Assembly: GCA_022414725.1 (NCBI GenBank) | Contig: CM039462.1 | Coordinates: 46,217,815-46,281,814, forward strand | Direction of reading: 5' to 3' | DNA from: Microglena sp. YARC | Taxonomy: Eukaryota > Chlorophyta > Chlorophyceae > Chlamydomonadales > Chlamydomonadaceae | DNA length: 64,000 nucleotides | Part shown: positions 3,619-60,748 of the stretch, in pieces | Layout of the letters: every line of letters begins with the position of its first letter | Position numbering within the stretch: position 1 is the first letter of the stretch | Program-made: the position numbers and the translations under genes | The notes under the pieces: generated by a model | Databases searched by the model: none | Told to the model about the DNA's origin: nothing | What the model saw: the letters and a program-made list of their open reading frames with translations, nothing else

Positions 3619-3742
3619 AGTAGTCTCGAATGTCCCGTGGAGCGGGAAGAGGGATTCAGTTGCAGAAACCTACAGTAAACGGCAGAAAACTGTCGAATCC
3701 ATCCGTCTGTCCATTCATTACACACGATGCGGTGGCGGAATA

Positions 3743-3780
3743 TACAGTTGTTCTCAAATAATTTTGGGACACTCAGTATA
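3743..3780. repeat. 37-bp TIR-like repeat (family A)
   Basis: The unit starts TACAGTTGTTCTCAAATAA, continues to GGGACACTC and is flanked by TA. It resembles a lone Tc1/mariner terminal repeat. Other copies are at 4779, 12409, 21156, 21272, 27149, 42668, 45249, 48625 and 56731. Confidence 0.7.
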
Positions 3781-4041
3781 ATTTGAATGATATCCCCTGA
3801 AACCAGGTACAGGTCCGTGGTTCACTACAAATATTTTTTGAGGAGTCCTGATGCTTACACTTCACCGAGTATTTGGTAGAGAGCGTCCTCTCGCGTTTCG
3901 CCGAGACGCGCCTAGAAGTTCCTCGACAACCCCACCCCCACCCCCTGATACTGATATGGGGACACAGACGGTTGAACGGTTTACCAAAGAGGCTACTCTG
4001 AATATCTTCGAGAACCTCTTCAACCTGCTGCACCCCCCAAC
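3781..4041. other. Intergenic stretch with shared repeat
   Basis: I see no convincing gene. About 75 bases (3962-4040), including ACGGTTGAACGGTTTACCAA and a C-rich end, recur at 13322-13386. This looks like remnant duplicated DNA. Confidence 0.4.
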
Positions 4042-4549: not shown

Positions 4550-4717
4550 TAATGGGCGTTCCTGCCTCCCGGCGATTTTTTTTAAATTTCTAATCAGGAT
4601 TTAGAGCCTCCTGAACGACTCGCTAGCTTGAGACATAAGCACCAAGGAATCACAAATCCGCTCCATACCATGTTTAGAAACCAGTCAAAATCGGCCGGGA
4701 GTCAGGAACGCCCATTA
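4550..4717. mobile_element. MITE family C, copy 1
   Basis: A 168-bp element including the flanking TA on each side. It starts ATGGGCGTTCCTGCCTCCCG and ends with the inverted complement. The core GAACGACTCGCTAGCTTGAG is shared with copies at 10391, 14146, 21982 and 27925. It has no coding capacity. Confidence 0.85.
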
Positions 4718-6057: not shown

Positions 6058-6144
6058 TACAGTCGGCGGAACAGTAAAATGGTACTTGCACTCTCGAAAG
6101 TAGTTTCTACGAGGCGGTTTCATTTTAGTATTCCGTCGACTGTA
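6058..6144. mobile_element. 87-bp mini-element of the mariner/Fanzor family (TIR family B)
   Basis: The left end is TACAGTCGGCGGAACAGTAA and the right end reads ATTCCGTCGACTGTA. They match the 5' end of the element at 16941 and the 3' end of the one at 8235. Almost nothing lies between, so this is an extreme deletion derivative. Confidence 0.65.
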
Positions 6145-6272: not shown

Positions 6273-8259
6273 ATGCAGTGGGGACTCGGTGTTGAGCACG
6301 AGTTCAACGTCTCTCTATCTTCTTCCCCGCGTGCGCAAACGATCCTTCCGTCAAAGGTCCTCCCCGAGTACGGCGGGTCGTCGTATTACTCTTCGATAAA
6401 AAACGATGAGAGCGTGTCTGCCGTGCGCGCACCCGCAGGCGTCGACCTGGACACAAAGGCGATCCGCGAGCACCTGCAGCACATCGCAGGACTGGACGGG
6501 CTTTTCTTGGACTCCGAAAAATCAAAGTCTAACGCGTCCAGGTCATTGTCGATTCAAACCTTCATGCGCAAGCAAGGCAAGGATACCGTACAGACGAGCA
6601 TTTACCGTGGGGACACACTGTTTGTCACATGCTGCAATGATGACATGTATTCGATCACGGTGATCCCGAACGAAAAAGCGACCTAGCACACCGCTGTCCG
6701 ATGAGGACACACTGCGCAGCCTGTGCGCGCTCCGCGCAGTCAAGGTATTGAAGAAATCCCAACGACAACAACAACAAAAACAACAACAACAATCCAAAAT
6801 AAACAAAAGTTACGACGTGGACGGCCCATTCCTGGAGACTCGCAGCACAAAGCACAAAAACGCGACCGTTGCCGGCGTGGCGAGACAGCTACACGACGCC
6901 GAAGCAGCGGTCCTGGCACGCGCGAACGAGGAGGGAATCACCGGCGCGCAGATATTTCCGTGGAGCGGCAGAATCACCCCACAGGGCGACGCCTTATACG
7001 AGGGCAGCTTCCACGTCTGGGTGACGCTCCCGCACGATCGCAATGTAGACATGACCTTGCGCGAGTACAAGCTGCTGCAACTGCAGCACGCGTACCTGGG
7101 CCATCTGCTGCAGACGGTTGAGCCATTACTCATGAGTCTTTTCTCGGGCGACCCCCGCGCCCTTGGCGACGACAAGAACACGCACAACCGCGCCAGTATG
7201 CGCGCGGACACCAGTAACTTTGCCGGATATGGCACCACAGCCGTGAAGTACATCGCACGAGGGCCGGACGTCGATTCGATTACCGGGTTCCAGGTCATGT
7301 GGTTCGAAAACGAGTCGGACATGCTGGCAAGACGCGGGGCACGCATGCAGCGCGACGACATGTCCAAGCTATTCGTGTGGATCGATGGCAAAAAGGTCCC
7401 GTTCACAGCATGCATTGGCTCACATATGCGGAACGGGTATTATTACCCTAATTACACGTGGAATATCCCATTACATAGGAGTCCAGAGGCAGGGACGGGG
7501 GCCGACATCCGCAGCAGGCTCTGCGACTCTTTAGACATGTCCCTGAAGAAGGGTTGGGTGCCCCTCTGGCTCCGCGTCCGCGACACACTGGAACTCCGGT
7601 TCGTGCATGGAGAGGGGACGCCGAAGGTCAAGGTGTCGCGGAACGCGCCTATTGACGCGAGGCGGTGGGGGAAGGAACTCGTCGGCATCGAGTTCCGCGC
7701 GATCGACAACATGCCCACGCACCAAATCGATCATGTGCTTCACCTCGTCGTGCTCTTGGGCGCAGCCGCCGTCTCGCAGGTCGAAAAAATATGGCATGAT
7801 AACGCCGACTCTGACCCAGACACCCAAGCCTTCTTCGCCACGCACGCCGCCACCCTCTCGCCCCACTGGAACGCCGCGCTCGACGCCGTACGCAAGCAGG
7901 GAGCGCACGCCCCATTACCCAAGGCGTACACCACCTACATCGCGTCCCAGGCGGGTATTTCATCCCTGAAGACACGCAATGCATCATCCGCCACCGCGTT
8001 CGGTGCGCTGCAGGACTTCGCGAAGAGCCTTCACGCCGAGTACTTCGCCCACTCCGTCACAGCCCTCATGCATCCGCGGTCGAACGACGAAGGACCGCCC
8101 GCGTTCTCGAACACCAACCAGGAGGCGTGGGAAGCGATGTACAACGAATTGGATGCTACGGAAAAAATATTGGTAGAAAAGTCAAAATTTGACGCACCAT
8201 ATCTCGTCGCAATGATGAACAGAGCGACGCATTCTACAGTAGGCAGAACAGTAAAATGA
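6273..8259 (+). pseudogene. Amidoligase / glutamate-cysteine-ligase-like protein, one frameshift
   Basis: The first part (6273-6686) opens with MQWGLGVEHEF, the GVExE motif that starts enzymes of the carboxylate-amine ligase group. It stops at 6684, but the next frame continues at once from a run of five A near 6673-6677, so one extra base explains the break. The second part has a Gln-rich linker, then EGSFHVWVTLPH with LLQTVEPLL, and later VGIEFRAIDNMP, all reminiscent of amidoligase-type enzymes that join an amino group to a carboxylate. The substrate is unknown. The last codons and stop lie inside the TIR of the element at 8235, so the original C-terminus was replaced. Confidence 0.5.
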
Positions 8260-8422
8260 AACATATATCAGATGGAAATAAATGTACGACATCGCCGTTA
8301 GAAAATTGGCGTTAAAATTCTTGCGAGTCCAAAGAAATATTGCAAACTGGAAATTGATTACAAGCTGACAGTTTCTTTAGATAACGCAGTGTCGAGCGTA
8401 GTGTAGTAATTCCCTTGTCCGA

Positions 8423-8653
8423 GTGTACCACTACATCGCCGTTAGAAAATTGGCGTTAAGAATGGTCGCTGACTTGGGTGTGTTAAAAACTTCTGTGTTT
8501 ACGAACATCAGTCGTTCTACTCTGTGGAGGTGGAAACGCTTTGGTGTAAATCGAAAACGACGTGAATTTGTAAGCAACCTTTTTGAGAAGAATAAGGATT
8601 TGTTAAAGTCACCCCGTCAATATTTTTTACACAGCAGCTCTGTTGATGAATAA
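8423..8653 (+). pseudogene. Transposase N-terminal remnant
   Basis: About 68 codons are almost identical to the N-terminus of the transposase at 16988 (helix-turn-helix with STLWRWKRFG). An internal deletion then replaces all three catalytic regions with a short unrelated tail. Confidence 0.75.
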
Positions 8654-8689
8654 AAACTCGTATTTTTGTGGTCGCGACAACATTAGGTT

Positions 8690-8703
8690 ACACCGCAAGG
8701 TGT
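8690..8703 (+). other. Hairpin in transposon 3' end (ACACC-GCAA-GGTGT)
   Basis: A perfect 5-bp stem closed by a GNRA-type tetraloop lies about 43 bp inside the right terminus. The stem is kept with different loops at 24743 (minus), 42898 (minus), 51955 and 56415. It is a candidate part of a Fanzor guide RNA scaffold (inference). Confidence 0.45.
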
Positions 8704-8802
8704 GCCGTACACGAAGCGGTTTCATTTAAGTATTCCGTCAACTGTATTGTATGTTGACTTTAAGGCTATTGATAGCGGTTAGTCCGGACAGCGGTGACAG
8801 GT

Positions 8803-9912: not shown

Positions 9913-10392
9913 TTATCCGAAACTGTCTGTACAAGGGGGTTGATTCTGGTTTGTTCGGCGCATTGTATATGTCGCAGTTCGACGGATAGATTCGCGTGTA
10001 TCTGTATCGCGTGGTTCTGAATGTTTACACTCGTTTTTTGATGCGCGTGTGGAACACGTGTCTTCGCAGCAGACTGCGTTTTTGTCATTCTTAGTCACCT
10101 TCTCCATGAGTTCAAACCTACCATGACATTTGCTCTCAATACAAGATTCGAGGGGCTTTGAAGTTTTCTCACCTACCTTACCAGCAGACGATACTTTCTC
10201 GTTGCATTTTGTTACTTTTCTGTACTTCGAGGCGTTCATGCGGAGCGCGCCGGCCCACTCGATCCATTCATCAAGCGTCCGTTCTTTTTTGTCAGAGTAA
10301 ACGCGGCGAACTCTTCGGATGTACGAGTCGTCCTTCTTTCCGCGTGGAGCGACTGATGTTCGTAAGTAAACACAGAAGTTTTTAACACACAA
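9913..10392 (-). CDS. Uncharacterised basic protein, chimeric N-terminus
   Basis: A 159-codon frame with a charged, Lys/Arg-rich middle (RTLDEWIEWAGALR) and a Cys-containing C-terminal half. The first dozen codons are antisense to a scrap of transposase DNA (AAACTTCTGTGTTTAC, also at 17050), so the native start is probably internal or lost. No domain is recognised. The MITE at 10391 abuts its 5' end. Confidence 0.35.
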   Translation of the reverse strand: MCVKNFCVYLRTSVAPRGKKDDSYIRRVRRVYSDKKERTLDEWIEWAGALRMNASKYRKVTKCNEKVSSAGKVGEKTSKPLESCIESKCHGRFELMEKVTKNDKNAVCCEDTCSTRASKNECKHSEPRDTDTRESIRRTATYTMRRTNQNQPPCTDSFG

Positions 10393-10557
10393 TGGGCGTT
10401 CCTGCCTCCCGGCCGATTTTTTTAAATTTCTAATCAGGATTTAGAGCCTCCTGAACGACTCGCTAGCTTGAGACATGAGCACCAAGGAATCACAAATCCG
10501 CTCCATACCATGTTTCGCAACCAGTCAAAATCGGCCGGGAGGCAGGAACGCCCATTA
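10391..10557. mobile_element. MITE family C, copy 2
   Basis: A 167-bp copy with both terminal inverted repeats. Its internal sequence is almost identical to copy 1 at 4550. It lies between the gene at 9913 and the glycosyltransferase. Confidence 0.85.
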
Positions 10558-14145: not shown

Positions 14146-14350
14146 TAATGGGCGTTCCTTCCTCCCGGCGGATTTTATGAAACAAAGGGCGTTCCTTCCT
14201 CCCTGCGGAATTTTTGAAATTTTTACTCAGAATTTAGAGCATCCTGAACGACTCGCTAGCTTGAGATATCAGCACCGAGGAATCACAAATCCGCTCCAGA
14301 CCATGTTTCGCAACCATTAAAAATCGGCCGGAATGCAGGAACGCCCATTA
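14146..14350. mobile_element. MITE family C, copy 3 (rearranged)
   Basis: It carries the left end twice (14148 and about 14189) and one right end at 14350. A further scrap of the internal sequence lies at 14365-14388. It looks like a nested or recombined insertion. Confidence 0.75.
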
Positions 14351-15833: not shown

Positions 15834-17021
15834 ATGATAATTACAGCGGAAATAAATAACCACATCTCGAGACGGCTCAAATGCCTAGAACACAAGTGGA
15901 AGTGGAGTTTATTGAGTTATAACTCATCTTTAACGTGGGACATTATCGAATGCAATCCAGACAAACCTTGGGACTGGTATTGGATCAGCAGAAACCCTTG
16001 CATCAAATTGGCGGTTGTCAAAGCAAACCCCGACAAACCTTGGGACTGGCGTGGGATGAGCGGAAACCCAGATATCACATGGGAGATTATACAAGATAAT
16101 CCAAACAAACAATGGGACTGGTATGAGTTGAGCGCAAACCCCAACATCACATGGGACATTATCGAATACAACCCCAACAAACCGTGGAATTGGTTTTGGA
16201 TCAGCAGAAAAACCGACATCACGTGGGATATTATCCAAGCCAACCCAGACAAACCATGGGACTGGCTTGGATTGAGCGCAAACCCCAACATAACGTGGGA
16301 CATTGTCAAAGCCAACCATGATAAACCTTGGAATATGTATAGGATCAGCAGAAAACCCAACATCACGTGGGATATTATACAAGACAACCCCGATATACCA
16401 TGGGATTGGCGTGGATTGAGCTCAAACCCCATCATCACATGGGATATTGTCAAAGCCAACCCAGACAAACCGTGGGACTGGGACTGGATCAGCAGAAAAC
16501 CCAACATAACGTGGGATATTGTCCAAGCCTACCCAGACAAACCATGGGACTGGCTTGGATTGAGCGCAAACCCCAATATCACATGGGATATTATCCTAGC
16601 CAATCCAGACAAACTATGGGACTTGTATGAGTTGAGCAGAAACCCCAACATCACATGGGATATAATCGAAGCCTACCCCGACAAACAATGGGACTGGTTT
16701 GGATTGAGCAGAAACCCCAATATCACATGGGATATTGTACAAGCCAATCCCGACCAACCTTGGTGTTGGTATGAATTGAGCACTAACCCCAATATGTTGC
16801 TATCTTCCCAAGACATATATGATATCATACGCAGATACATGGCAGTAAGAACTATACAAAAAATATGGCGACATGTCATCACAAACCCGAGTTATGTTGC
16901 ATGTCAAAACAGACTCTATATGGAATATAATGAAATGGTCTACAGTCGGCGGAACAGTAAAATGAAACATATATCAGATGGAAATAAATGTACGACATCG
17001 CCGTTAGAAAATTGGCGTTAA
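15834..17021 (+). CDS. PDKPWDW-repeat protein, tail replaced by transposon
   Basis: About 12 tandem repeats of some 27 residues (NPDKPWDW, then LSxNPNITWDII), each with conserved tryptophans and prolines. The tail IIRRYMAVRTIQKIWRHV resembles an IQ-type helix. The start at 15834 is chosen because earlier codons derive from the preceding gene scrap. At 16941 the reading frame enters the mariner TIR, so the last 27 residues are transposon-encoded. Repeats of this type occur in giant viruses; their function is unknown to me, and a protein-binding scaffold is a guess. Confidence 0.75.
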   Translation: MIITAEINNHISRRLKCLEHKWKWSLLSYNSSLTWDIIECNPDKPWDWYWISRNPCIKLAVVKANPDKPWDWRGMSGNPDITWEIIQDNPNKQWDWYELSANPNITWDIIEYNPNKPWNWFWISRKTDITWDIIQANPDKPWDWLGLSANPNITWDIVKANHDKPWNMYRISRKPNITWDIIQDNPDIPWDWRGLSSNPIITWDIVKANPDKPWDWDWISRKPNITWDIVQAYPDKPWDWLGLSANPNITWDIILANPDKLWDLYELSRNPNITWDIIEAYPDKQWDWFGLSRNPNITWDIVQANPDQPWCWYELSTNPNMLLSSQDIYDIIRRYMAVRTIQKIWRHVITNPSYVACQNRLYMEYNEMVYSRRNSKMKHISDGNKCTTSPLENWR

Positions 17022-17973
17022 GAATGGTCGCTGACTTGGGTGTGTTAAAAACTTCTGTGTTTACGAACATCAGTCGTTCTACTCTGTGGAGGTGGAAACG
17101 CTTTGGTGTAAATCGAAAACGACGTGAATTTGTAAGCAACCTTTTTGAGACGAATAAGGATTTGTTAAAATCGTTTTTATTGTCAACTCAATGCACAACC
17201 GCAAGAGGCGTTGTTGCTTTTTTCAAACGTACTCACAATGTACGATTATCAACTAAAACAGTGTATCGTTTCATAAAACTCATTGGTTTTACAAGAAAAG
17301 GAGCAAACTCCGTGGACAGTGCAAAGGGGACTTAGTTCCACTTGTCAATGAATTTTGTAGTAGGTACAAGGAGACAATCAATGCTGGGAAAATTTTAGTA
17401 TCAGTTGACGAATGTGGGTTTAGTGAGCGTCTCAAGCCACATTATGGGTATTCCCCTGTAGGAAAACCTGTTATCGTTAAAACTACTGGTGGGTGGGTAC
17501 ACCACAGTTTGTTGATGGCAGTTTTTTCAGATGGTAGGAAAGAATTCGTTGTGAAGAAAGGATCTGTGAAGAAGACGGACTTCGTTGCATTTATTGAATC
17601 ATTGAGTTTGTGCAATAATTCAGTAGCAATAATGGACAATGCCAGTATCCATAAGAAATTGGTCCTCAGTCACCCCGTCAATATTTGTTACACACCTCCT
17701 TACAGTCCAGAATTCAATGCTATTGAGCTATGCTTCGCTAAGGTGAAGAGAGACTTTCGTCGTTTGAACTACATACCGAATGAAACAAAGACGCACGTGT
17801 CTGATATGATTTCCTTAGCATTCGGCAACCTCACTGATAAAATTATTATGGGTTGTTTTGAACATGTTTGGAACACTTATGTGTATAAAGCGGTCTGTGA
17901 CGTATTGATTATGAAAGATGGCGACGAAACCTCCGACAGTCGCGAAATTGAAGGAGCTACTGAAATTGGCTGA
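16988..17973 (+). pseudogene. Tc1/mariner (IS630-like) transposase, one frameshift
   Basis: The N-terminal helix-turn-helix (STLWRWKRFGVNRKRR) is in the first frame, which ends at 17335. The catalytic part continues in another frame with SVDECGF (first Asp), IMDNASIHK (second Asp) and YSPEFNAIELCFAKVK (Glu), the DDE triad that cuts and joins DNA ends. The break fits one missing A in a run near 17298-17301; the fragment at 11612 reads through this point. The C-terminus overlaps the Fanzor start by about 50 bases. Confidence 0.85.
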
Positions 17974-20300
17974 AGTACCATACTCGTCGAAGTCCAACAA
18001 GGACGATCTTGTCCGTTTATGCGAAGACAATGGTCTCATCGCCAGACCCCCTCCAGAATACAAGACGGTGGAAAAGATGTGTGTCGTGAAATGCGCCCTG
18101 AAGAAGGCAATGAGTCTTGACGATGAAGAATTCGGTAAGTTTAGGGAGCATGTGGACCAGCTCGTCAATGTGGTGAGCCGCATGTTACGGCGGTCCAGTC
18201 TGGTGCTGACTTTCCACATCACGAGTCTATTAGAGAAAGGTCTGGATATTCCAGACCTGTACAACATGAAAGATACCTACTGGAAGGATTGGCTACGTAT
18301 CGGGGTAGACGGAATCTTCCCTGATGAGGAAAGCAAGATATCGTACGAAGCTGTGAAGGACTCCATCGGCGATGTAATTGGTAATGACGACGCTGACTAC
18401 ATCAAGTCTTATCCGATCTATTTCGATCAGGTATTGAACTATGCAGGTCACACATTGAGCACTGTCGTGTCAAACAACGCATGGGTTCCTTTGATACCAC
18501 GTCTGACCAGACTCACTTCCACCACTTTAAATAAATTAAATGCCCCGAAGACGCTGGACACATCGAAGATCATTCGGGGATACGACGTGATGCAGGCTAT
18601 TCAGGAAGAAGTCCAAAACATGGAGGGATGGCCAGAGTCTGTTCAAGAGTACGTCAATGAAGTTAGGGAGATGCTGAGTGTTCCAGATGGAAGTCGAGTT
18701 TATGATAACTATGGCAAAGACATGGACTTTCCGACCATGGTCCGGTTTAATTATTGGATACAGACACGGTTGGAGGATATGGATGCACGTCGTTCCGATT
18801 GATGCCCATCTTCAATGTCCAACGGGTGCATGTTCGCCTTGACCTGAAGACCCTCGTGAACCTGTTCAGGAACATGTTCCCCAATGACCAGAACATCGTT
18901 GAGCTTTCCAAGTGGGAACATGTAAAGAATCCCGACAGCTTCATGTTGCCAGAGCCTGCACAGAAGAAGAAAAAATCATGTGGTCCTGGTGAATGGGAGG
19001 CATACAAGTCGGTCCTGAAGCAGTACGATGATGATGTTAAGGATATCAAGGCTACTGACGAGTACAGACATGCAAAGGGTTTGTATGACACGCTTGTGAA
19101 CGCCCGAAAAACAGTCGCAGGTTCCTTCTTCAGAAAACCACCTGTCAAGAATGGGTGGGTTTTCGACTGCAGCATCTGTACTGACGGAGTCTCTTTGAGC
19201 ATGCAGTACAGCAAGACAGTACAGGTCCTTGTCTCAGATTTGAAGAAGACCTGTAAGAAGCCTCGTAAAGAAGAAGGTATCAAGATCGCAGAAAAATACG
19301 ACGGCTCACTTAAAACGATATTGCCCGATATGGGTATCGTCGTCCTGGGTGTGGACCCAGGACGGAGCAACATCGCTACGGTAACGTATTTGGCAGACGA
19401 TAAAAATAAGACATGGAAGCTGACACGTGGTGCATTTTACCACAAGTCGGGTATCAAGAAGCAGACAAGGCAGAAGGAACTGCGTTTTGCTGACATGATT
19501 CCTATGTGGGAGTCTCTGCGTGAAAATGGAGCAGCTTTGAGTACATCGAGGACGGATAAGATCTCCGCGTACTTGTCAAATTACGCTAAGTTTTCTGACG
19601 AGTGGTGGAGATTGGCTTTGCGACGCCGAGAATCCCGTGACAACTTGCAGCGTTACATCGGAAAACGAAAGGTCAAAGACTCTTTCTGGGCGGGTATCAA
19701 GCGGTGCATGATGAAAGAACTTCCTGATATGAAGGTTTGCGTGGCCTACGGATCTGCCATCACGAAACTGAAGCCTACTGGACCGGGAGAAGTTGCAGTT
19801 CCCACTGGGGCCATGTTCGCATCGTGTAAAAGAATTTTCAAAGAGGACGTTTCTGTGACAGATGAGTTCAAAACGACTCTTATGTCGTGGGAGAACGGGT
19901 ACAGAAAAAGAAACGTGTTTACAAGAATCCCAAGTGTTTGTTCAGCAGACGTGAAGCTTAGGTTGGGTGGTGAACGTTTTGGGTCACACGAAATCGAAAA
20001 CGATGCCAAAGGTCGCTGATTGCGACCACTTAGGGGTAAGGTTGTACAATAAACGTAAAGGCGCACAAGAGAAGCACAGGAGGGGTGGCTTCGCCACTTC
20101 CCTTGTCGATTCTCAAAAATCGATCGAGCGGTACCCAGAGGTACGAGGACTGCGATTCTCTCCAGAAACATGCATTTACTCGGACCGGGATCGATCGCTC
20201 TTCTGCTCTCACAATCGCAAGGCTGCACTGCATGGAATTGATGGGTCTAGGACGACCTCTTCCATTTGCCCACAGCAGCTCTGTTGTTGTTGATGAATAA
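17918..20300 (+). pseudogene. Fanzor (TnpB-like RNA-guided nuclease), several frameshifts
   Basis: Segment 1 (17918-18802) is the N-terminal recognition part, beginning with a SAP-like helix (VAKLKELLKLAEVPYSSKS). Segment 2 (18754-20019) holds RuvC-I, LGVDPGRSNIATVTYL, with the catalytic Asp. RuvC-III (DRDRS, then SALTIARL) lies at about 20178-20220 in two further frames. The break near 18795 needs one base; those between 19930 and 20190 disrupt the zinc-finger zone. Family members are RNA-guided DNA endonucleases of transposons. As read, this copy could not make a complete enzyme. Confidence 0.75.
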
Positions 20301-20433
20301 AAACTCGTATTGTTGTAGACACCACTCGGTCCCCCTCCGGTCGGTCGCGACAACATTAGGTTACACCGCAAGACCGTACACTCGAGTGTAATGTAGATCA
20401 TCACTTTGTCGTCTGAGTGGGAAGTGTAGTTGA

Positions 20434-21192: not shown

Positions 21193-21271
21193 AGTGTATT
21201 ATGGCACTTTGATGCGACCATTCCTGCCCGAAGAATGAACGATTCATCAGGGGATAATATCATTCAAATTA

Positions 21272-21307
21272 TACAGGGTGTCTCAAAATTATTTGAGAAC
21301 AACTGTA
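21272..21307. repeat. Family-A variant, 36-bp near-palindrome
   Basis: It starts TACAGGGTGTCTCAAAATTA and ends GAACAACTGTA. Both ends read TACAG outward. Its last A is the A of the next gene's start codon. Confidence 0.7.
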
Positions 21308-21984
21308 TGCTCAAGGCGACAGCCAAGCGCAGTGGGGTGTCTTTCTTCGAACCTGACCCAACCTTGTTTGATGCTGTGCACAAGGAGATGAGAGGCATAG
21401 CGGGAGATGAGGCGATGTTTAGCATCACCGTGCCCAACGTGGACTTGCCAGTCGACCTTGGGTTCACTCAGGACTTTGATCTGAAGCTGGCGATTGGGGA
21501 CGATGGAGATGTCGTGGTCTGCGGACGGCACTGGACTTTGTTTACCACTGTCACCCAGCCCATGGCAGACTTTGAGGCGGCGTATGGGATCCTGCAACAG
21601 ACTGCAATGGTCTCTTGTGCGGCAGCTGCAGCAGCGGAACCACCGCCGCTCGACATCGACGACTCCTGCATGCCATTCGATAAGCTTACATATGCAGTAG
21701 TTGTGGCACTGGAGGAGCTGGTGGACAACAGCTGCTGCCCCAACACTCGTGTGTTTGCGTGGCTGTATGCCAAGCACCTGCGGGCAGCCGACATGGATTT
21801 CATGGACCTGCTGCAAACTCCGGCCATCGCCAATATGGCATCTACAGCGCTGGACGCCTGGTTTGTGCGGCACCCGATGTTCAGGGCACAGGCGCATGAG
21901 GCTCAGGATCTGCTGATCACTGTGCTGGATGACTACACGCCATCGCGTCCGCGGTACGAGCCATACTGGGTGAGTGAGAGTTAA
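21307..21984 (+). CDS. Uncharacterised protein, partly duplicated at 22303
   Basis: A 225-residue protein from the ATG at 21307, which directly abuts the repeat; earlier codons come from repeat DNA. It has a beta-rich segment (DLKLAIGDDGDVVVCGRHW), an Ala/Pro-rich linker and a helical C-terminal half. No family is recognised. The MITE at 21982 overlaps the stop codon. Confidence 0.6.
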   Translation: MLKATAKRSGVSFFEPDPTLFDAVHKEMRGIAGDEAMFSITVPNVDLPVDLGFTQDFDLKLAIGDDGDVVVCGRHWTLFTTVTQPMADFEAAYGILQQTAMVSCAAAAAAEPPPLDIDDSCMPFDKLTYAVVVALEELVDNSCCPNTRVFAWLYAKHLRAADMDFMDLLQTPAIANMASTALDAWFVRHPMFRAQAHEAQDLLITVLDDYTPSRPRYEPYWVSES

Positions 21985-22126
21985 TGGGCGTTCCTTCCTC
22001 CCAGCGGATTTTTTGAAATTTCTACTCAGAATTTAGAGTCTCCGGAAAGACTCGCTAGCTTGAGACATCAGCACCAAGGAATCACAGATCCAGTAAAAAT
22101 CGACCGGGAGGCAGGAACGAGCATTA
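21982..22126. mobile_element. MITE family C, copy 4 (internally deleted)
   Basis: It has both ends, but about 20 bases before the right inverted repeat are missing relative to copy 1. It supplies the stop codon region of the gene at 21307. Confidence 0.75.
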
Positions 22127-22189
22127 TTTCTCAATTTCTTCATGTCTCATGTCTCATTTCTCAATTTCTTCGCTCGACACCGAAATTAA

Positions 22190-27689: not shown

Positions 27690-28170
27690 CTCTACTATGC
27701 GGTTTGCTGGTCCCTGAACTCTTTCTTGAGGTAAAAAACTATCTTCCGAATTCGAATGTGCTTCTTTATATTCATCGCCATCCAAGTACCTTTAGGGCCT
27801 ATTACTCTGGGAATAAAATAAAGGTACTCGCAAGTCTTGTCTTGGGCAGCCTTATTGTAGCTGCCTATGGTATGGTATGGTAAGACTTTAAGTGGGAAAT
27901 CAGTGAATGAATCAGTTTGACAAGTAATGGGCGTTCCTTCCTCCCGGTGGATTTTTTGAAATTTTTACTCAGAATTTAGAGCATCCGGAACGACTCGCTA
28001 GCTTGAGATATCACCGAGGAATCACAAATCCGCTCCAGACCATGTTTCGCAACCAGTCAAAATCGGCCGGGAGGCAGGGACGCCCATTAAGTGTCGGATG
28101 CTTGTCCCTGACCAAGCATTCTCTGGTGAGTACGTACCATTGTTTTGCGGACACCTGTGTCGATGGATGC
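27690..28170 (-). pseudogene. TnpB fragment split by a MITE
   Basis: 27700-27790 matches 49450-49520 and 28089-28165 matches 49605-49690 of the IS607 TnpB. The MITE at 27925-28089 sits in between, at a point equivalent to about 49604. The intervening 27790-27910 has diverged or been replaced. Confidence 0.65.
27925..28089. mobile_element. MITE family C, copy 5 (nested in TnpB remnant)
   Basis: A 165-bp unit flanked by TA on both sides. The flanking TnpB homology lines up across it, which supports the element boundaries and a TA target duplication. Confidence 0.85.
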
Positions 28171-28698: not shown

Positions 28699-31600
28699 AT
28701 GCACTACACTCCCGACGCCGCAGCCGCACCCATCATGGACGCATTCTTCAAGGAACGCGAGAAACACTTCGCTACACAACATCACATCGACTCGTTCGAT
28801 GACCTACTAGGAACGCGTCTAAGAGCGATCGTACGCAGCATGAACCCAATCACAATGGTTCGCGAAGACCCCAACACGAAAACCAAACACACTGTGAAGG
28901 TGTACGTAGGAGGAGACGAAAAACTCCGCCCCGATCACGACGTGCACATAGGAGACCCAACCCCGACTCTACCATCACAAGCCCGTATAGCAAACCAAAC
29001 GTACGGTGCGGACATCTTCGCAGACGTCCACGTGGTCTATCCGGACGACAACGACGAGACACGAGACTTCGAACGCGTGCACATCGGATTCATGCCCATC
29101 ATGATCCACTCCAAAGCGTGCTCTCTAAGAGGGCTAAATCCGCACCAGTTACGAGCACGAGGAGAATGCCCATACGATATGGGCGGATACTTCGTAATAG
29201 ACGGACGCGAAAAGGTCATCGTGACACAAGAGGAACGCGTCCCGAACCGACTCTACACACGACGCGGAGAGAAAATAGAATACGACAAACTCATCCTAAA
29301 AGCATTCATCAGGTGCGTGTCCACAGACGCGCGCGACGTGTTCCCACGCACAAGCGTCTTCCGAGTCATGACTTCGGGTGAAATCACAGCCACGGTCACC
29401 CACATCAACGAAGGAGCCGTGCCCGTCACAACTCTCTTCAGAGCACTCGGCATCGAAAGCGATCGCGCCATCCTCAAAACCATCTTCCACGAAGATCCAG
29501 GAGAAGAGAGAAACAAGGTCGAAATCGAATTCATGCACGCATCCATAGCCGCAGGACACAAGTCCGGAGTAAGCAGCCAGAGAGGAGCCATAGATTTCCT
29601 CATACCACGCACACGATTCAAGTCCCAACTCGACCTCAAAAGCGTCCTCACAGACGACCTCTTCCCAAATGTAGGACGCACGTTCGAGGCCAAAGCAATC
29701 GCCCTAGGAGAAGTCGTGAGACATCTCGTAAGAGCCGCTCTAGGAAAAGAACCCATGTCGGAACTCGATCACTACGCCAACAAGAGACTCATGTGCTCAG
29801 GTGCAATCACAGCCAATCTCTTCAGAGACGCGTACCTACTATCAATCGCAACAACCCTGCGCACGCTCAACGAAGAGTTCCTCACCGGACCATGGCGCGT
29901 CGCAAACGATATACACACGCTCGTCAACGAAGCCAACCTGAAAAATATATTCCAACCAAGAATCATCCGAGAAGCCCTCGTACGAGCACTCAAAGGATCG
30001 CGACGCGGCGATGACAATGCACGCGCGCCCGTCCAAGAACTCAGCAGAGTCTCATATCTAGGATACATTTCACACATGAGACGAGTAAACAACCCCGTCG
30101 ACAGGAACGTCAAGATAGCAGACACACACCGTCTAAGGCCGTCGCACTGGGGAGTCATCTGCCCAGTAGAGTCACCAGACGGACCCAACGTAGGCCTCCT
30201 CACGCACCTAGCCACGCTTGTCACCATATCACTTGCCATACCAGAACCCGTCGTACAAGAAACCATAAGACCCGCCATAGACAAATACACGAGACATCTA
30301 TCAAACAGCACACTATCCCCACAATCAACCGCGGTGCACTTTAACGACACATGGATAGCGATCACAGACACACCCAAGGAACTAGTCGATGCACTACGAA
30401 AAATGAGGACGGAAGACACCAGACTGAACACACTCGGTGTCACATGGGACGTGTGGAGGAACGACGTGGCAATCCGCACAGATGCAGGAAGATGCTGCAG
30501 ACCACTAAGAAGAGTACAGGAAGGAAAGGTCGTACCAATCAACGGCGATCCGTCGTGGACCGAATTGATACGCAGCGGAGCGATCGAAATGATAGACGTC
30601 GAAGAAGTAGCTACATGTCTAGTGGCAATGAACGAGGCAGACGTCAACAATCGAGACCCGATCCCAGGCAGATACACGCACGCAGAGATACACGCAGGAA
30701 GCACACTCTCAATGGTAAGCAACACCTACCCACTACTTAACCACAACAACGGGGCGTACAACTCACTATGTCTAGCGCAATTTAAACAAGCGCTAGGCAC
30801 GACCATGACATCCATCAGGGACAGGTTCGATACTAACACATTCCTACTACACCACGCCCAACGCCCTCTGGTAAGCACGAGCTTCGCAGACAGACTCTTC
30901 GGAGGACGTTTCGCGCACGGCGAGAACGTCGTGGTAGCAATCGCCACATACACAGGATACAACCAAGATGACGCCATCATCATCAATCTAGACGCCGTGC
31001 AGCGCGGCCGACTAGCACTCACAGTATTCGAAACCATCCGGTACGAGGAGTCAGAGGAGGAACCAGAGGACCCAAACATTCAAAAAACAAAAAACCAAAT
31101 TGTGTTTGCGAACCCACAGCGGCTAGTGTCACGTGGGTACGCCCTATCAACCACCACCAAAACAACCACAAAAGAATACTCAAACCTCGACGAACATGGA
31201 ATGCCAAAGATCAACAAAATGCTAAGAGAAGGAGACGCAGTTGTAGGAATGGTCAAGGTACCATCGACCGCAGCAAAGGAAGACGTCTTCACGGACGCAT
31301 CTCAACGTCTACAATCCCGAGAATCTGACCTTCCCACGTATGTAGACGGCGTCCACTTGCAAAACATAGATCAGAACACAGCAAAAGACACCGCACTACC
31401 ACAACTTAGAGCATGCAAAGTACGTCTCCGCCAGATGCGCAGCCCCGAACTAGGAGACAAACTAAGCTCGCGTTACGGCCAGAAAGGGGTTGTGGGAATG
31501 ATTCTACCCGCCGTGGACATGCCGTTCTGCGCAGAGGACGGTATCGTCCCCGACATCATCATCAACCCCAATGCATTCCCCAACCGTAGGACAGTCTCGC

Positions 31601-32187
31601 ATATACTGGAAGCCGTGCTAGCGCGCGAGGGAGCAGTCAAAGGAGCTCGCATGAACGCCGACACATTCGGAGGAGAAGACATCGGAGCCGCGCTGACCCA
31701 ACTGGGTCTGCGTGAAAACGGACACGGGAACATGCTCATGCACAACGGACGATCCGGAGAAGAGGCGAAAACACGCATCTTTGTAGGCGTGAATTACTAC
31801 GGTCGCTTGAAACACATGGTAGAGGACAAGTACCAGTCGCGTGCACGAGGAGCAGTCGACGCCACAACACGTCAGCCAACGAAGTCCAAGGGACAGAGCG
31901 GAGGGCTGCGCATCGGAGAGATGGAGCAGAACGCACTAATTGCACACGGACTCGCATCGTTCACACGCGAAGCGTTCATGCAGCGCAGCGATCACCACTC
32001 AACTAAGGTCAATGCCACGTCAGGAACGCCGGCGGAATGGTGGGCCGCAGCACGCGAAGACCCAGAAGGACCCGACGATGAGGCAACTGTTGAAACACCT
32101 TACACGTTCACACTCATGCAACACGAACTCAGAGCATTGGGGGTGGAGGCAGCGCTTCTCACATCCACTGATGAATTTTATTTATAG
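28699..32187 (+). CDS. DNA-directed RNA polymerase subunit 2 (RPB2)
   Basis: An intact 1162-residue protein with no intein. Conserved segments in order: GGYFVIDGREKVIVTQEER; SHWGVICPVESPDGPNVGL (about 482-500); NGAYNSLCLAQFK; TYTGYNQDDAIIIN (about 750-763), part of the active centre; GDKLSSRYGQKG (about 921-932), the hybrid-binding region; and YYGRLKHMVEDKYQSRARG, then GGLRIGEMEQNALIAHG near the end. It forms the polymerase active site with RPB1 for viral transcription. The C-terminal clamp zone between REAFMQRSD and PYTF has no cysteines, so the usual RPB2 zinc ribbon is missing. A fragment is duplicated at 46364. Confidence 0.97.
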   Translation: MHYTPDAAAAPIMDAFFKEREKHFATQHHIDSFDDLLGTRLRAIVRSMNPITMVREDPNTKTKHTVKVYVGGDEKLRPDHDVHIGDPTPTLPSQARIANQTYGADIFADVHVVYPDDNDETRDFERVHIGFMPIMIHSKACSLRGLNPHQLRARGECPYDMGGYFVIDGREKVIVTQEERVPNRLYTRRGEKIEYDKLILKAFIRCVSTDARDVFPRTSVFRVMTSGEITATVTHINEGAVPVTTLFRALGIESDRAILKTIFHEDPGEERNKVEIEFMHASIAAGHKSGVSSQRGAIDFLIPRTRFKSQLDLKSVLTDDLFPNVGRTFEAKAIALGEVVRHLVRAALGKEPMSELDHYANKRLMCSGAITANLFRDAYLLSIATTLRTLNEEFLTGPWRVANDIHTLVNEANLKNIFQPRIIREALVRALKGSRRGDDNARAPVQELSRVSYLGYISHMRRVNNPVDRNVKIADTHRLRPSHWGVICPVESPDGPNVGLLTHLATLVTISLAIPEPVVQETIRPAIDKYTRHLSNSTLSPQSTAVHFNDTWIAITDTPKELVDALRKMRTEDTRLNTLGVTWDVWRNDVAIRTDAGRCCRPLRRVQEGKVVPINGDPSWTELIRSGAIEMIDVEEVATCLVAMNEADVNNRDPIPGRYTHAEIHAGSTLSMVSNTYPLLNHNNGAYNSLCLAQFKQALGTTMTSIRDRFDTNTFLLHHAQRPLVSTSFADRLFGGRFAHGENVVVAIATYTGYNQDDAIIINLDAVQRGRLALTVFETIRYEESEEEPEDPNIQKTKNQIVFANPQRLVSRGYALSTTTKTTTKEYSNLDEHGMPKINKMLREGDAVVGMVKVPSTAAKEDVFTDASQRLQSRESDLPTYVDGVHLQNIDQNTAKDTALPQLRACKVRLRQMRSPELGDKLSSRYGQKGVVGMILPAVDMPFCAEDGIVPDIIINPNAFPNRRTVSHILEAVLAREGAVKGARMNADTFGGEDIGAALTQLGLRENGHGNMLMHNGRSGEEAKTRIFVGVNYYGRLKHMVEDKYQSRARGAVDATTRQPTKSKGQSGGLRIGEMEQNALIAHGLASFTREAFMQRSDHHSTKVNATSGTPAEWWAAAREDPEGPDDEATVETPYTFTLMQHELRALGVEAALLTSTDEFYL

Positions 32188-32773: not shown

Positions 32774-34856
32774 ATGGGGGTGGTGACAAACAACGGAGAT
32801 GACGACGATCTGGACATCATGGTGGTCAAGAAGACGCTTAATTCTTTGTGCATGGATGTATCGAGGCAGCAGATCTGCTCAAGGATCCAAAGCATGGTAC
32901 TCGTAATCAACCAAGCAGTTGCAGAGGCATACTTATTCGCAAATTTTCACATAACCAGATGCCTAGATGATGGAGACTTTGATGTCAATCAGTTGCCGCA
33001 CCTGGATCGGAACTTCTACTACAGGTGCATCCTTGCTGTCTCGACATCCAACGTTCGAAAGGATACGCTGGGACAAAGCTTGAAGGATAGCATGGTTGCT
33101 TTCGACGCTCTCAGGCCTGCAGGCTACTTAAAGGTGGACGTTCGTCAATGGGGACAGGTAATCGCAGACGTCTCAATACAAATGGCGACGATGGCATGCA
33201 ACAGCGTCTGGGCAAACGTGGACAGGGTTGTAATCAAGTACCTGCGCTTGAAACATCCCTCGTTGAAGAAACATTTCAATAAGATTGTCAAAGCGGTGGT
33301 CCAGTATCCTGACTCGGATATCGACAAAATCATCCCAGCGGGTCTCGTGCATGCGAACCTCATCAAAGACGTTGTCAGACGCCTGAGAGATCTCTTGCCG
33401 CTTCCAAGGGGGAAGCAGTTCAACACTCGAGCACCTGACAATGAGACTGTTTCATCACGTGCTTACAGAGTTGGGAGCAGATCTAAAAGAGAAAACAACA
33501 AAAAAACGCCCCCGTCTGTTCAGTATCCTTCCACGCAAGAGCGGCTTCACCATTTCTTACGTCCCTATATCGTCCATGACACTCATGAAGCTTCTCAGCA
33601 TGGGCGATTCGCCGCTCGAGAGCGTCCGTGGCGATGGACGTCACGAGAATCATTCCATGTTGTGGAGAAAGTACTTCAATGTCCAAGGACTTGAGACGAA
33701 AGGGTCTCGTTTTGACAACCGAATCCTCAGCGACGGCAAAGGGGTCTCCGTCCAAATGAAGCATCAGGTGGGTAAAGATATCGCTGGAGAAGGAGGAGGA
33801 GATAATGCGGGGTATCCCAAAGACGCAAGTATCGAAGACTGCCAGGACGCTTCTTTGCGCCAGGGTGCGCTGCGTGTCGGTATCGACCCGGGTATGACAG
33901 ATATCGTCACTATAGCATCTTCTGACGGTCGAGTCGAGTCTTTCAGCTCTGCCCGCTTTAGCGAAGCAGCTGGGTACAATACCAGCAATCGTCGCACAAA
34001 CAAATGGAATGCCGATACGCAAGACCTCGTGAAGTCCATTCAATCGCCGACTACGAGCAGTATGCAGGACCATGTCAGAGGTTACCTTAGCGCGCTCCCG
34101 ACCCTCCTTCAACACCGAGCCAACAGAGGTTACCGATCGATGCGATTCTTTCGATATGTGGGCAAACAGAAGACGATTGAAAAGGTATGCGATTTGATTG
34201 CTCCAAAAGCACAGAAGAAAACGATTGAAGAAAAGGGATGCGATGTGATTGCTCCAAAAGCAAAGAAGACCGTTGTTGGCTTCGGCAACTGGTCCAACCA
34301 GGGCTATGGAATCAGTCGTTCGTGTTCTGGACCAGTGAAAGAGATCAGGAAGTGCCTTTCACGTCGTCAGAATGTTCTGTTCAAAAACGTCGACGAACGC
34401 AACACTTCTTGTACTTGCCACGGCTGCTTCCAGAAGCTCGTCAACATGAAGGCAGACAGCGTCGTCTGGCGCAGAGTTCAAAACGAGCCCTCCGCCCTCA
34501 TCGACGGGGCTCCTACAACAACAACAACAACAACGATTGAGAAGCAGAAGACGGTGGTGAAGAACGTTAAGGTCCACAAAGTACTGCACTGTCGCAACAG
34601 TGTCAAAAGCGCATCATCCAATGTGCGCTGTGGTGCAACATGGAACCGAGACGTGAACGCTGCCAAGAACCTTCTTCTGCTTCTGACGACGTGGATGGAC
34701 GGGAAAGAGCGACCAGCGGCATTTTGTGGGCCCTCCTCATCGCCCCCCCAAAAACCACAGTTTCCGGAGAGGCAAATGTGGGCGCTCAACAAACCGACCC
34801 ACCTGGGTCAGTTAGCAGCTTACAATTGTTATCCTCTGGGCCAGCTTAAATGCTGA
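32774..34856 (+). pseudogene. Second Fanzor nuclease, one frameshift
   Basis: N-terminal part in 32774-33470, then a frame change between 33441 and 33690 into the long catalytic frame ending at 34856. RuvC-I is VGIDPGMTDIVTIAS (about 33877). The RuvC-II zone has VVGFGNWSNQGYG (34274-34312). A zinc-finger zone has CTCHGC (34412-34429), CRN and RCG. RuvC-III is WNRDVNAAKNLLLL (34643-34684). These are the marks of Fanzor1-type RNA-guided nucleases. A stretch of about 48 bases around 34171-34266 is present twice in tandem. I found no transposase in its element. Confidence 0.8.
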
Positions 34857-51802: not shown

Positions 51803-51810
51803 TGTAAGCG

Positions 51811-51885
51811 CTCATCTGCTCTCACAATCGCAAGGCTTTCATTCATTGCATGGAACTGTTGGGTCAAGGGAGACCGCTTACATTT
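51811..51885 (+). pseudogene. Fanzor RuvC-III fragment
   Basis: TCATCTGCTCTCACAATCGC and CATGGAACTGTTGGGTCAAG correspond to 20197-20252 of the Fanzor at 17918 (SALTIARL, then HCMELLG in a shifted frame). Confidence 0.65.
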
Positions 51886-51899
51886 TGCAGGGATGCGGC

Positions 51900-52012
51900 G
51901 TGTTGTTGATGGGCTACAAAAACATGATGGTGTTCCACTGCAAAGTGGGTTGCTACACCACTTTAAGGTGTACCCCGTACACTCCAGAAAGCGGAAATTC
52001 CGTCGAGTGTAC
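51900..52012 (+). mobile_element. 3' end of a family-B element
   Basis: GGTTGCTACACCACTTTAAG with the conserved stem at 51955-51971, then a terminus reading ATTCCGTCGAGTGTA. It follows the Fanzor fragment, as in the full element. Confidence 0.6.
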
Positions 52013-52152: not shown

Positions 52153-52468
52153 TTAAATAGGCCTTGGTTGAATGAGACTGTAGTGCGCGGTCATCCCATC
52201 GCCAAGGGCAGACCGGTGCACCTTTTCTGCGTTTGAATCTATTCTACGCCTTTCAAGAACGCGTTGATTGTTCAGGGGTGACAACTGGATTTCCAGCAAC
52301 TGGCCTGTCTGATTCGTCACGTGAATTGCCCCAGAAATGAGAACCCTCCATGTGCACCGCACTGTAGCGAATCCCATGTTCCACCGAATGTAGTAAGCCG
52401 CCTACAAACCATTTATACTCAATCTGAGAAAGTTGGACATGCCATGCGATTCTCAGTTTTGCAAACAT
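52153..52468 (-). CDS. Uncharacterised protein, one frameshift
   Basis: Two overlapping frames (52468-52253 and 52377-52153) probably form one protein of about 100 residues (MFAKLRIAWHVQLSQIEYKW, later LLEIQLSPLNNQRVLERRR). The 5' end lies inside family-B element DNA, so the start may be borrowed. No family is recognised. Confidence 0.4.
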
Positions 52469-52515
52469 TTATTTCCATCTGATATATGTTTCATTTTACT
52501 GTTCCGCCGACTGCA
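52466..52515 (-). mobile_element. 5' end of a family-B element (inverted)
   Basis: TTTATTTCCATCTGATATAT then ACTGTTCCGCCGACTGCA is the reverse complement of 16941-16990. No matching partner end was found within 600 bp in the right orientation. Confidence 0.65.
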
Positions 52516-54101: not shown

Positions 54102-55226
54102 ATGTTTTCCAACGACAGTATCAAGGACGAAATTAATAAACACATCATAGCACAATTAAATCAGAAAGATGCACAATGGGTTTGGACGAGATTGAGTAGA
54201 AACCCTATCATTACTTGGGAAATTGTCAATGCCAATCTTGACAAGGAATGGAATTGGTATGGTATTAGCAGAAACCCCACAGTAACTTCGGAAATTGTCA
54301 CGTCCAATCCAGACATACCATGGAACTGGCTTGGAATAAGTGCGAACCCAAACATCACATGGGAACTTGTCGCTACCAACCCTGACAAACCCTGGGACTG
54401 GTATGAATTAAGCAGAAACACAAACATCACTTGGGATGTTATCATAGCCAACCCTGACAAACCTTGGTATTGGGTGGCCATATCACAACACCCAAACATC
54501 ACTTGGGATGTTATCATAGCCAACCCTGACAAACCTTGGTATTGGGTGGCCATATCACAACACCCAAACATCACGTGGGACATTGTTGTTGCAAACCCTG
54601 ACAATAATTGGGACTGGATGGGATTAAGCAGAAACCCTAATATAACATGGGATATTGTTGTTGCAAACCCCGACAAATATTGGAATTGGTGTGAATTGAG
54701 CAGAAACCTAAACATCACTTTGGACATTGTCTCTTCTAATCCTGAAAAAACATGGAGTTGGGTCGGTTTAAGCTGGAACACAAACATAACATGGGACATT
54801 GTTGCTGCCAACCCATACAAACCATGGGATTGGATAGGGTTGGGTCTGAATTCAAATATAACATTTGACATTGTCCAAGCCAATCCTACCAAACCATGGA
54901 ATTGGTGGAGCATATCACAGAACCCTACAATTACGTGGGATATAGTTGTTACCACCCCTGAAAAACCTTGGGATTGGAGGGGATTAAGCAGAAACCCAAA
55001 TATCACGTCGGAAATTGTAAATAGCAATCCTGACAAACAATGGGATTGGTGTGAATTGAGCATACAAAGTCAAATGCTTCTTCCATCAAAAGATCTTTGT
55101 AACATCATAAAAAAACGTAGAGCAGCTAAAGCAATCCAGAAAACATGGAGGCATGTTATTACAAACCCGTCTTATATTGTATGTAATCGAAGATTATTGA
55201 GAGAATTCAATGAGATTGTGCAATGA
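54102..55226 (+). CDS. PDKPWDW-repeat protein (intact)
   Basis: 374 residues from a clear ATG. About 12 tandem repeats of 27 residues (ITWDIVVANPDK, then WNWCELSRN) are followed by the conserved tail IIKKRRAAKAIQKTWRHV and CNRRLLREFNEIVQ. Two adjacent repeats (54430-54570) are identical at DNA level, marking a recent unit duplication. It is the best-preserved family member in the window, so its tail serves as reference for those at 4042 and 15834. Function unknown. Confidence 0.85.
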   Translation: MFSNDSIKDEINKHIIAQLNQKDAQWVWTRLSRNPIITWEIVNANLDKEWNWYGISRNPTVTSEIVTSNPDIPWNWLGISANPNITWELVATNPDKPWDWYELSRNTNITWDVIIANPDKPWYWVAISQHPNITWDVIIANPDKPWYWVAISQHPNITWDIVVANPDNNWDWMGLSRNPNITWDIVVANPDKYWNWCELSRNLNITLDIVSSNPEKTWSWVGLSWNTNITWDIVAANPYKPWDWIGLGLNSNITFDIVQANPTKPWNWWSISQNPTITWDIVVTTPEKPWDWRGLSRNPNITSEIVNSNPDKQWDWCELSIQSQMLLPSKDLCNIIKKRRAAKAIQKTWRHVITNPSYIVCNRRLLREFNEIVQ

Positions 55227-56364: not shown

Positions 56365-56467
56365 TATTCAAATCGTATTGGTGTTCCACTGGTGGGTTGC
56401 TACACCATTTGGTTACACCGTAAGGTGTGCCGTACACTCCTTTCATTTTAGTATTCCGTCAAGTGTA
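56365..56467 (+). mobile_element. 3' end of a family-B element
   Basis: The conserved stem-loop ACACCGTAAGGTGT at 56415-56428 is followed by a terminus reading ATTCCGTCAAGTGTA. The 5' part is missing. Confidence 0.65.
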
Positions 56468-60665: not shown

Positions 60666-60748
60666 AAGTCAACGGAATACTTAAATGAAACCGCTTCGTG
60701 TACGGAACACCTTGCGCCTAATGTTGTCGCGACCACCGGAGGGGAGTA
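60666..60748 (-). mobile_element. 3' end of a family-B element (inverted)
   Basis: It begins GTCAACGGAATACTTAAATG, then a degenerate stem and GTTGTCGCGACCACC, as near 8671-8690 reversed. It joins directly to D5 fragment DNA. Confidence 0.6.

What the first reader, a model, noticed from the sequence alone, without database searches (positions are those of the whole stretch)
16941..20372. Mariner transposase and Fanzor in one viral transposon, with a small derivative revealing the missing end
The large copy has a mariner-type TIR, a DDE transposase and an overlapping Fanzor, but homology to its 3' end stops at 20372. The 512-bp element at 8235-8746 has the same 5' end and transposase start, then jumps to sequence found after the Fanzor and ends in a matching TIR. 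This shows that transposase and Fanzor were one mobile unit.
Basis: partly seen in the sequence, partly recalled or inferred. Interest (0 to 1): 0.88.

Follow-up and report, generated by a model that had tools for sequence, protein, structure and literature searches.

The report
Giant-virus-island mariner with Fanzor-like nuclease
A cut-and-paste jumping gene with well over a thousand ends in a eukaryote's genome that is laced with giant-virus genes carries its transposase and a predicted RNA-guided DNA-cutting enzyme in one unit, and 98% of its counted intact left ends sit directly after the letters CTA, which are likely the cutter's recognition mark.

Summary
The window is not a viral genome: it is a giant-virus-like island in a 568-Mb eukaryotic genome. 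The copy at 16943 is 98.6% identical to a complete 3,471-bp element elsewhere, and 18 of 20 fetched transposase copies run end to end with transposase and Fanzor-like gene. So transposase and nuclease are one mobile unit. The window copy is dead: both genes are frame-broken, and its right end looks shortened rather than absent. Mariner-Fanzor elements have been in print since 2013 (PMC3627910), so the pairing is not new. New here: (1) the protein has a Fanzor1 fold and D-E-D triad, but 0 of 45 aligned relatives keep the C4 zinc finger; (2) of intact left ends with their TA, 1,385 of 1,415 follow C, against 656 of 2,533 right ends, a one-sided footprint that I read as the nuclease's target-adjacent motif (TAM), as in SpuFz1; (3) deletion derivatives keep a right-end segment predicted to encode the guide RNA. 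Whether the C is a TAM or a left-end preference of the transposase is not settled. New variant of a known kind.

The parts
16940..16942 (+). C + target-site TA before the left end (predicted TAM CTA)
   Evidence: sequence; 1385 of 1415 intact left ends with TA genome-wide have this C
16943..16968 (+). left terminal inverted repeat, perfect
16988..17335 (+). transposase, N-terminal piece (HTH-like), frame broken after this
   Evidence: open 302-328 aa frames in other copies
17509..17973 (+). transposase, DDE_3 piece
   Evidence: PF13358 E 7.8e-16
17918..18802 (+). Fanzor-like nuclease, N-terminal piece (weak HeH-like start, REC part); overlaps transposase end
   Evidence: same gene as P0001
18754..20019 (+). 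Fanzor-like nuclease, WED/RuvC piece with TDG and DPG motifs, frame broken before the last catalytic D
20020..20300 (+). out-of-frame remnant of the nuclease C-terminus (RGLRF..DRD region)
   Evidence: read against P0001 and BLAST to L057
20311..20390 (+). remnant of the predicted guide-RNA (omega RNA) right-end segment; second stem and terminal stem damaged by ~4-bp and ~30-bp deletions
   Evidence: inferred by comparison with complete right ends
20383..20390 (+). likely surviving outer bases of the right end (CGAGTG) and TA duplication
   Evidence: inferred
8235..8746 (+). small mosaic derivative, left end 8237-8262, right end 8719-8744, TA on both sides, CTA at left; carries the right-end hairpin segment
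24698..25129 (-). 432-bp MITE of the same family, 93% identical to a MITE elsewhere (L003); left flank CTA
6060..6142 (+). 83-bp mini element with both ends, no hairpin segment, left flank ATA
51809..51994 (+). degenerate nuclease 3' end plus right-end segment of another copy
52465..52513 (-). isolated left end of another copy, flank CTG instead of CTA
56379..56465 (+). right-end fragment (MITE remnant)
60666..60744 (-). right-end fragment

Best explanation
This is a broken copy of a ~3.45-kb Tc1/mariner-type transposon that carries a DDE transposase and a Fanzor1-like, zinc-finger-less predicted RNA-guided nuclease as one unit, and that likely keeps itself in place by cutting empty CTA sites. 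How it works: the transposase would excise the unit and insert it at TA (TA duplications and one clean empty site are shown; catalysis is inferred). The last ~105 nt of the element plus the duplicated TA would be transcribed as a guide-RNA scaffold, with the right flank as guide (predicted from conserved stems; transcription not tested). The nuclease loaded with this RNA would cut the sister or homologous site that lacks the element, where the guide's target follows C-TA. At the occupied right junction the base before TA is G, so the element would not cut itself. Repair from the occupied copy would restore or spread the element. MITEs that keep both ends and the right-end segment would ride on both enzymes. 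The setting is giant-virus-derived islands of a eukaryotic genome, where many near-identical viral copies would offer both empty sites and repair templates.
Against: No experiment: neither transcription of the guide RNA nor cleavage is shown. The C4 zinc finger, part of the motif called strictly conserved in Fanzor/TnpB (PMC3627910), is missing in 45 of 45, so activity may be lost or altered. RNA evidence is modest: single-sequence folds are barely better than shuffles (z -0.74 to -1.56 in 4 sequences), and RNAalifold alone found two stems with no pair changed on both sides; in the shuffle control the number of doubly changed pairs is no higher than chance (1 against 1.0). Elements with a left-type end on both sides (5 pairs) have CTA at both ends, as a transposase preference would give. 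Right ends have more C (25.9%) than background (16.2%), so some symmetric preference may exist. 13 of 20 probed nuclease copies showed no left end at full-length spacing. In 17 of 22 examined copies at least one frame is not open.
Confidence: 0.66

Rival explanations
1. The C before TA is a target preference of the transposase bound to the left end, not a TAM; the nuclease is a passenger as far as insertion sites go.
For: All 5 left-left pairs in fetched loci (L013, L021, L024, L041, L062) have CTA on both sides. Right-end C is above background (25.9% against 16.2%). The bacterial relative IS630 is recalled to prefer CTAG (recalled, no call).
Against: Such a preference should be near-symmetric because the two ends are near-identical inverted repeats; it is 97.9% against 25.9%. 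The left-left pairs are few, L013 and L021 read alike, L041 ends in a tandem repeat, and others could be fusions of two insertions that each brought its own left end. SpuFz1 gives a measured precedent for flank = TAM.
Confidence: 0.28
2. The nuclease is inactive or has another role: it is kept only as part of the transposition machinery, for example as a DNA- or RNA-binding regulator.
For: Loss of the C4 zinc finger in 45 of 45 aligned relatives.
Against: D, E and D of the RuvC triad are kept in 45 of 45, the fold is complete, and dN/dS between subtypes is about 0.22.
Confidence: 0.15
3. The element is a host transposon that piled up in silent viral islands after integration, rather than a virus-borne element.
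For: It is seen here only in a cellular genome; the IMG/VR scans found no exact TIR and no encoded relative.
Against: The first 100 listed left ends fill 34 of 332 100-kb bins on the first 33 Mb of C1, and all 5 listed capsid/RPB2 places there lie within 60 kb of one (chance about 0.002), which shows co-location but not order. The longest-contig length 148,317 bp recurs for a nuclease relative (P0004, 74%) and an RPB2 relative (P0080, 51%), probably one virus-like JGI contig.
Confidence: 0.35

Closest known systems
Fanzor1 in Tc/mariner elements (PGv-1, PUl-1, HMa-1; Bao and Jurka 2013, PMC3627910, abstract and passages read)
   Same: Mariner-like transposase plus Fanzor1 in one element with TIRs and TA duplications, in giant viruses and in a virus-like contig of a Hydra assembly; 5' transposase shared while the 3' part differs.
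   Different: [quoted passage not shown] here over a thousand left ends, no C4 finger, and MITEs with the right-end segment.
SpuFz1 elements and ghost loci of Spizellomyces punctatus (Saito 2023, PMC10432273, section 7 read, other passages)
   Same: Fanzor1 fold; conserved bases upstream of the left repeat; non-coding ghosts that keep the right-end RNA segment.
   Different: SpuFz1 loci hold a single ORF and the TAM is CATA; here an own DDE transposase sits beside the nuclease and the footprint is CTA.
SfAV Fanzor1 element (Yoon 2023, PMC10711439, section 28 and passages read)
   Same: Right TIR and duplicated target letters are part of the guide-RNA scaffold.
   Different: Another virus and another element; no transposase is named for it in the text that I read.
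Submariner MITEs of Pandoravirus salinus (Sun 2015, PMC4495683, passages read)
   Same: Tc1/mariner MITEs with TA duplications multiplying in giant-virus DNA.
   Different: 30 copies, near-palindromic 243 bp, no nuclease mentioned in the passages; the related autonomous element was found in the amoeba and has stop codons.

Membership tests
Tc1/mariner (IS630) transposon | terminal inverted repeats | tested here: met
Tc1/mariner (IS630) transposon | TA target-site duplication | tested here: met
   TA at 61 of 63 left and 43 of 44 right distinct ends; empty site with single TA
Tc1/mariner (IS630) transposon | DDE/D transposase | tested here: met
   PF13358 DDE_3 E 1.4e-23; D141, D217, E247 with 29 residues between the last two (residues picked by eye), shorter than the 34 that I recall as typical
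Fanzor1 | Fanzor1 fold (REC, WED, RuvC) | tested here: met
Fanzor1 | TDG motif in the WED domain | tested here: met
   45 of 45 aligned; motif named in PMC10711439 section 28
Fanzor1 | D ... alternative E ... RD catalytic residues | tested here: met
   D494, E664, D771 in 45 of 45, R770 in 44; E assigned by its place before [TS]T
Fanzor1 | C4 zinc finger between [TS][TS] and RD | tested here: not met
   no CxxC in this interval in 45 of 45 (45 of 62 available sequences aligned); hence I call it Fanzor1-like, not a Fanzor1 in the strict 2013 sense
Fanzor1 | right-end omega RNA | tested here: inconclusive
   four-helix structure counted on 26 of 33 right ends in hand, one compensatory pair, but weak folding scores and no RNA data
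Fanzor1 | RNA-guided DNA cleavage with a TAM | not testable with these tools
   only the one-sided CTA footprint
MITE / ghost element | short, non-coding, both ends of an autonomous family, many copies | tested here: met
   10 of 33 left-right pairs are 415-441 bp, 18 are over 3 kb

The most novel reading that the evidence does not exclude
A zinc-finger-less Fanzor built into a mariner drives the whole family through giant-virus DNA by homing: each of the many MITE copies still makes a guide RNA that ends in its own flank, so one nuclease is served by hundreds of different guides, cuts every empty CTA allele in co-resident or co-infecting viral genomes, and has printed its TAM on 98% of intact insertions. 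The genome would then be a readable record of an RNA-guided gene drive among viruses.
Probability: 0.33. Interest if true: 0.85.

Novelty: new variant of a known kind. Interest (0 to 1): 0.62.

Why it matters
What Fanzors do for eukaryotic transposons is an open question. Here one can read, in a single genome, over a thousand left ends with a one-sided flanking letter that would be part of the enzyme's TAM, beside a transposase family with many open frames. That makes the homing (retention) model testable by counting: TAM alleles, empty sites, guides and MITEs are all there. The loss of the C4 finger in the sampled subfamily with the catalytic triad kept would also suggest that this domain can be dispensed with, which bears on how small or altered RNA-guided nucleases may be.

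Tried and rejected
Phage records: no megablast match to the element. IMG/VR: no exact left- or right-type TIR and no encoded relative of the nuclease among 21 pattern stretches. Left-left elements as a test of TAM against transposase: only 5 pairs (L013 and L021 read alike; L041 composite), so not decisive. The 83-bp mini family (ends in AAATGGTAC) as a control without the RNA segment: 11 with C and 33 without; but several copies lie 47 bp apart in tandem, and the copies whose flanks I could read share one flank, so I do not count them as independent and use them as evidence neither way. Foldseek on viral models gave mostly proteins named transposase, Cas12f1-like/TnpB-like or unnamed, with a few other names further down. 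The weak match of the nuclease to nickel superoxide dismutase (E 0.0009 over 81 residues) was dropped as chance; it did not recur with the profile. The idea that the window copy lacks its right end altogether was dropped after comparison with complete ends; that the closing bases are at 20383-20388 remains inference. The output of the empty-site script was cut, so only part of its hits was seen: one clean case, one with a substitution in the TA (L057 against L016), others with gaps at the junction or inside copies of the element. The organism was not identified; the closest RPB2 relatives bear only EukProt gene numbers.

Rows dropped before counts: 17 of 61 nuclease relatives (short, partial or surplus) were left out of the 45-row alignment. 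7 of 33 right ends were left out of the RNA alignment (5 near-duplicates, one without hairpin, one with a CA repeat). The genome-wide flank counts take only ends that match the given pattern exactly and have TA beside them.
Full report
Setting. The window is C1:46217815-46281814 of an unnamed 568-Mb genome with 2,390 contigs; C1 has 195 Mb. It is therefore cellular DNA. Yet the window holds a 1,162-aa RPB2 in one open frame (28699-32184), D5-like and DUF5906 proteins, F-box-like, LRR and repeat proteins, and a second Fanzor at 33441-34853, whose weak PF07282 match and four spaced cysteines before NRDVNAAKN look canonical. The genome has 46 RPB2 match rows at 40 scored places, 36 of the rows at 95% identity or more, and 57 of 59 NCLDV capsid match rows over the curated cut-off (some rows are pieces of one gene), with 0 of 14 control genomes matching. 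So the window is one of many giant-virus-derived islands.

The element. A TIR pattern with up to 3 mismatches, which takes in left- and right-type ends, has 6,048 matches in the genome and none in the reversed control. A protein search with an open transposase gave 134 match rows from 130 scored of 2,716 candidates. I fetched 20 of these with 5.5 kb each. 18 of 20 align to one complete 3,453-bp unit (TA included) from L032 along its whole length (L063 in two pieces), 17 of them with a right TIR at up to 4 substitutions and TA at both ends; L050 and L062 lack the nuclease. Two subtypes exist: one 97-98% identical to L032, one about 84%. The window copy belongs to the second: 98.6% identical to L057 over 3,435 columns.

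From the nuclease side the picture is mixed. Of 55 best-scored nuclease places (of 2,206 candidates), 22 had a listed transposase directly upstream. Of 20 others probed with 101-base stretches at full-length spacing, 6 showed a left TIR, 1 transposase sequence and 13 neither.

The window copy. Its transposase is split into two frames and its nuclease into two frames plus an out-of-frame tail. I infer a shortened right end at 20388; the pairwise alignment to L033 alone leaves the last bases ambiguous.

The nuclease. The 823-aa frame of L032 (P0001; in most other copies the frame would open at the internal MATKPP start, because one stop lies ahead of it - inferred from the one-TGA rows) has 61 relatives in a 5.8-billion-protein collection, almost all of them unnamed ena, jgi or lgn sequences, and one named Chlamydomonas incerta protein. 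Pfam sees only a weak HeH-like start. A profile of 45 sequences matches Guillardia Fanzor1 (E 3.1e-8) and SpuFz1 (0.029) in the region with the TDG and DPG motifs. The AlphaFold2 model (pLDDT 87.3) has Fanzor1 structures as its first seven PDB matches by Foldseek and by VIA-align. TDG, D494, Y625-G626, E664, T668 and D771 are invariant in 45 of 45, but no CxxC occurs between E664 and D771 in any. Bao and Jurka define Fanzor/TnpB by D-X-[TS][TS]-XX-[C4]-X-RD; this family keeps all but the C4 finger. I therefore call it Fanzor1-like.

The one-sided flank. In fetched loci 61 of 63 distinct left ends have C at the third position outside (60 of 63 read CTA in full), and positions further out are mixed; 44 right ends have 13 A, 9 C, 11 G, 11 T there. 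Genome-wide exact counts of ends with TA: left 1,385 C and 30 other; right 656 C and 1,877 other. C before TA is 16.2% of NTA in the window and 16.5% in the loci, so right ends are also somewhat raised. A clean empty paralogue of the L052 site shows C-TA-G with one TA, hence C was there before insertion; a second, less clean case (L057 and L016, 88% identity) has a substitution in the TA. In Spizellomyces, SpuFz1 and ghost loci have a conserved CA upstream of the left repeat, and the measured TAM is CATA. By this precedent I read CTA as the TAM. It has a logic (my inference): the TSD re-creates TA at the right junction of an occupied site, so only a base outside the TSD can tell empty (C-TA) from occupied (G-TA). 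The rival, a left-end preference of the transposase, is kept at 0.28 because all 5 left-left pairs have CTA on both sides.

The right end. 31 of 33 left-right pairs in hand have CTA at the left, and 31 of 33 have a hairpin ACACC-N4-GGTGT some 41-60 nt from the right end, MITEs included; the two without are the 83-bp mini and L004 with a CA repeat. On 26 right ends a four-helix structure that I drew from the folds pairs 96.8% of cells, slid versions at most 56.5%, and one pair is compensatory (G-C in 14, U-A in 8 of 25 distinct rows). The terminal stem would include the TSD. In 10 of 10 ends with the upstream TACACTC the TIR reads GAG instead of GAC, as in one further end (TACCT-C), which restores pairing; shared ancestry could also explain this. 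Single-sequence folding is only weakly better than shuffles, and RNAalifold unaided found two stems without covariation. So the RNA is predicted, not shown.

Selection and activity. Among open frames the nuclease has median dN 0.125, dS 0.577, ratio 0.22 in the 5 pairs with dS over 0.15; the transposase has ratio 0.21 in its 25 such pairs, at dS only about 0.16. Both genes look constrained. The larger dS of the nuclease half suggests that halves have been exchanged, as Bao and Jurka describe for chimeric elements. In 5 of 22 copies both frames are open (transposase 295-335 aa, nuclease 760 aa or more).

Where it lives. The first 100 listed left ends fall in 34 of 332 100-kb bins of C1, and all five listed capsid or RPB2 places in that stretch lie within 60 kb of one (chance about 0.002). 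Relatives of both the nuclease (P0004) and RPB2 (P0080) have the same longest contig length, 148,317 bp, in JGI data: probably one virus-like contig with both genes, which I could not fetch.

What is known. Mariner elements with a Fanzor1 and TA duplications were described in 2013, also in giant viruses (PMC3627910, abstract and passages). Ghost elements with the RNA end were described in 2023 (PMC10432273, section 7). MITEs in giant viruses were described in 2015 (PMC4495683, passages). No paper of the held library has the three words 'Fanzor', 'mariner' and 'giant virus' together, though PMC3627910 covers the matter in other words. Of the listings for Fanzor with TSD/TAM, zinc finger, or endogenous viral terms (titles and abstract starts of 20, 20 and 10 papers seen, apart from the papers read) none announces a finger-less family; most subscription papers are not held. 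Verdict: a real and informative variant of a known kind.

Noticed in passing
32774-34856: A second, different Fanzor in the same window, with canonical-looking cysteines before NRDVNAAKN, split over two overlapping frames; a similar pair of frames lies in L031 5980-6993 (minus strand).
   Followed up: partly
28699-32184: Viral-type RPB2 with 40 scored places in the genome out of 428 candidates, 36 of 46 match rows at 95% identity or more: an unusually virus-laden eukaryote with recent copies.
   Followed up: partly
4551-4717, 10391-10557, 14184-14350, 21983-22149, 27918-28095: Another MITE-like family of about 170 bp with inverted ends AATGGGCGTTCCTGCCTCCCGGC.
   Followed up: no
3742-3793 and 21257-21308: Inverted pair of a 52-bp repeat with ACAGTTGTTCTCAAATAATTTT; looks like the end of a further Tc1-type element.
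   Followed up: no
15861-16880 and 54141-55168: Arrays of a 72-bp repeat coding for NPxITWDIxxxNPDKPWDWxxLS; the large element at 16943 is inserted at the end of the first array's gene.
   Followed up: no
L032, L057 and sister copies: The two subtypes share a close transposase but a much more diverged nuclease half, which suggests exchange of halves.
   Followed up: partly
L041 2450-2560, L050 1427-1546: 47-bp tandem units that each contain a left TIR, as if a satellite were starting from a transposon end.
   Followed up: no
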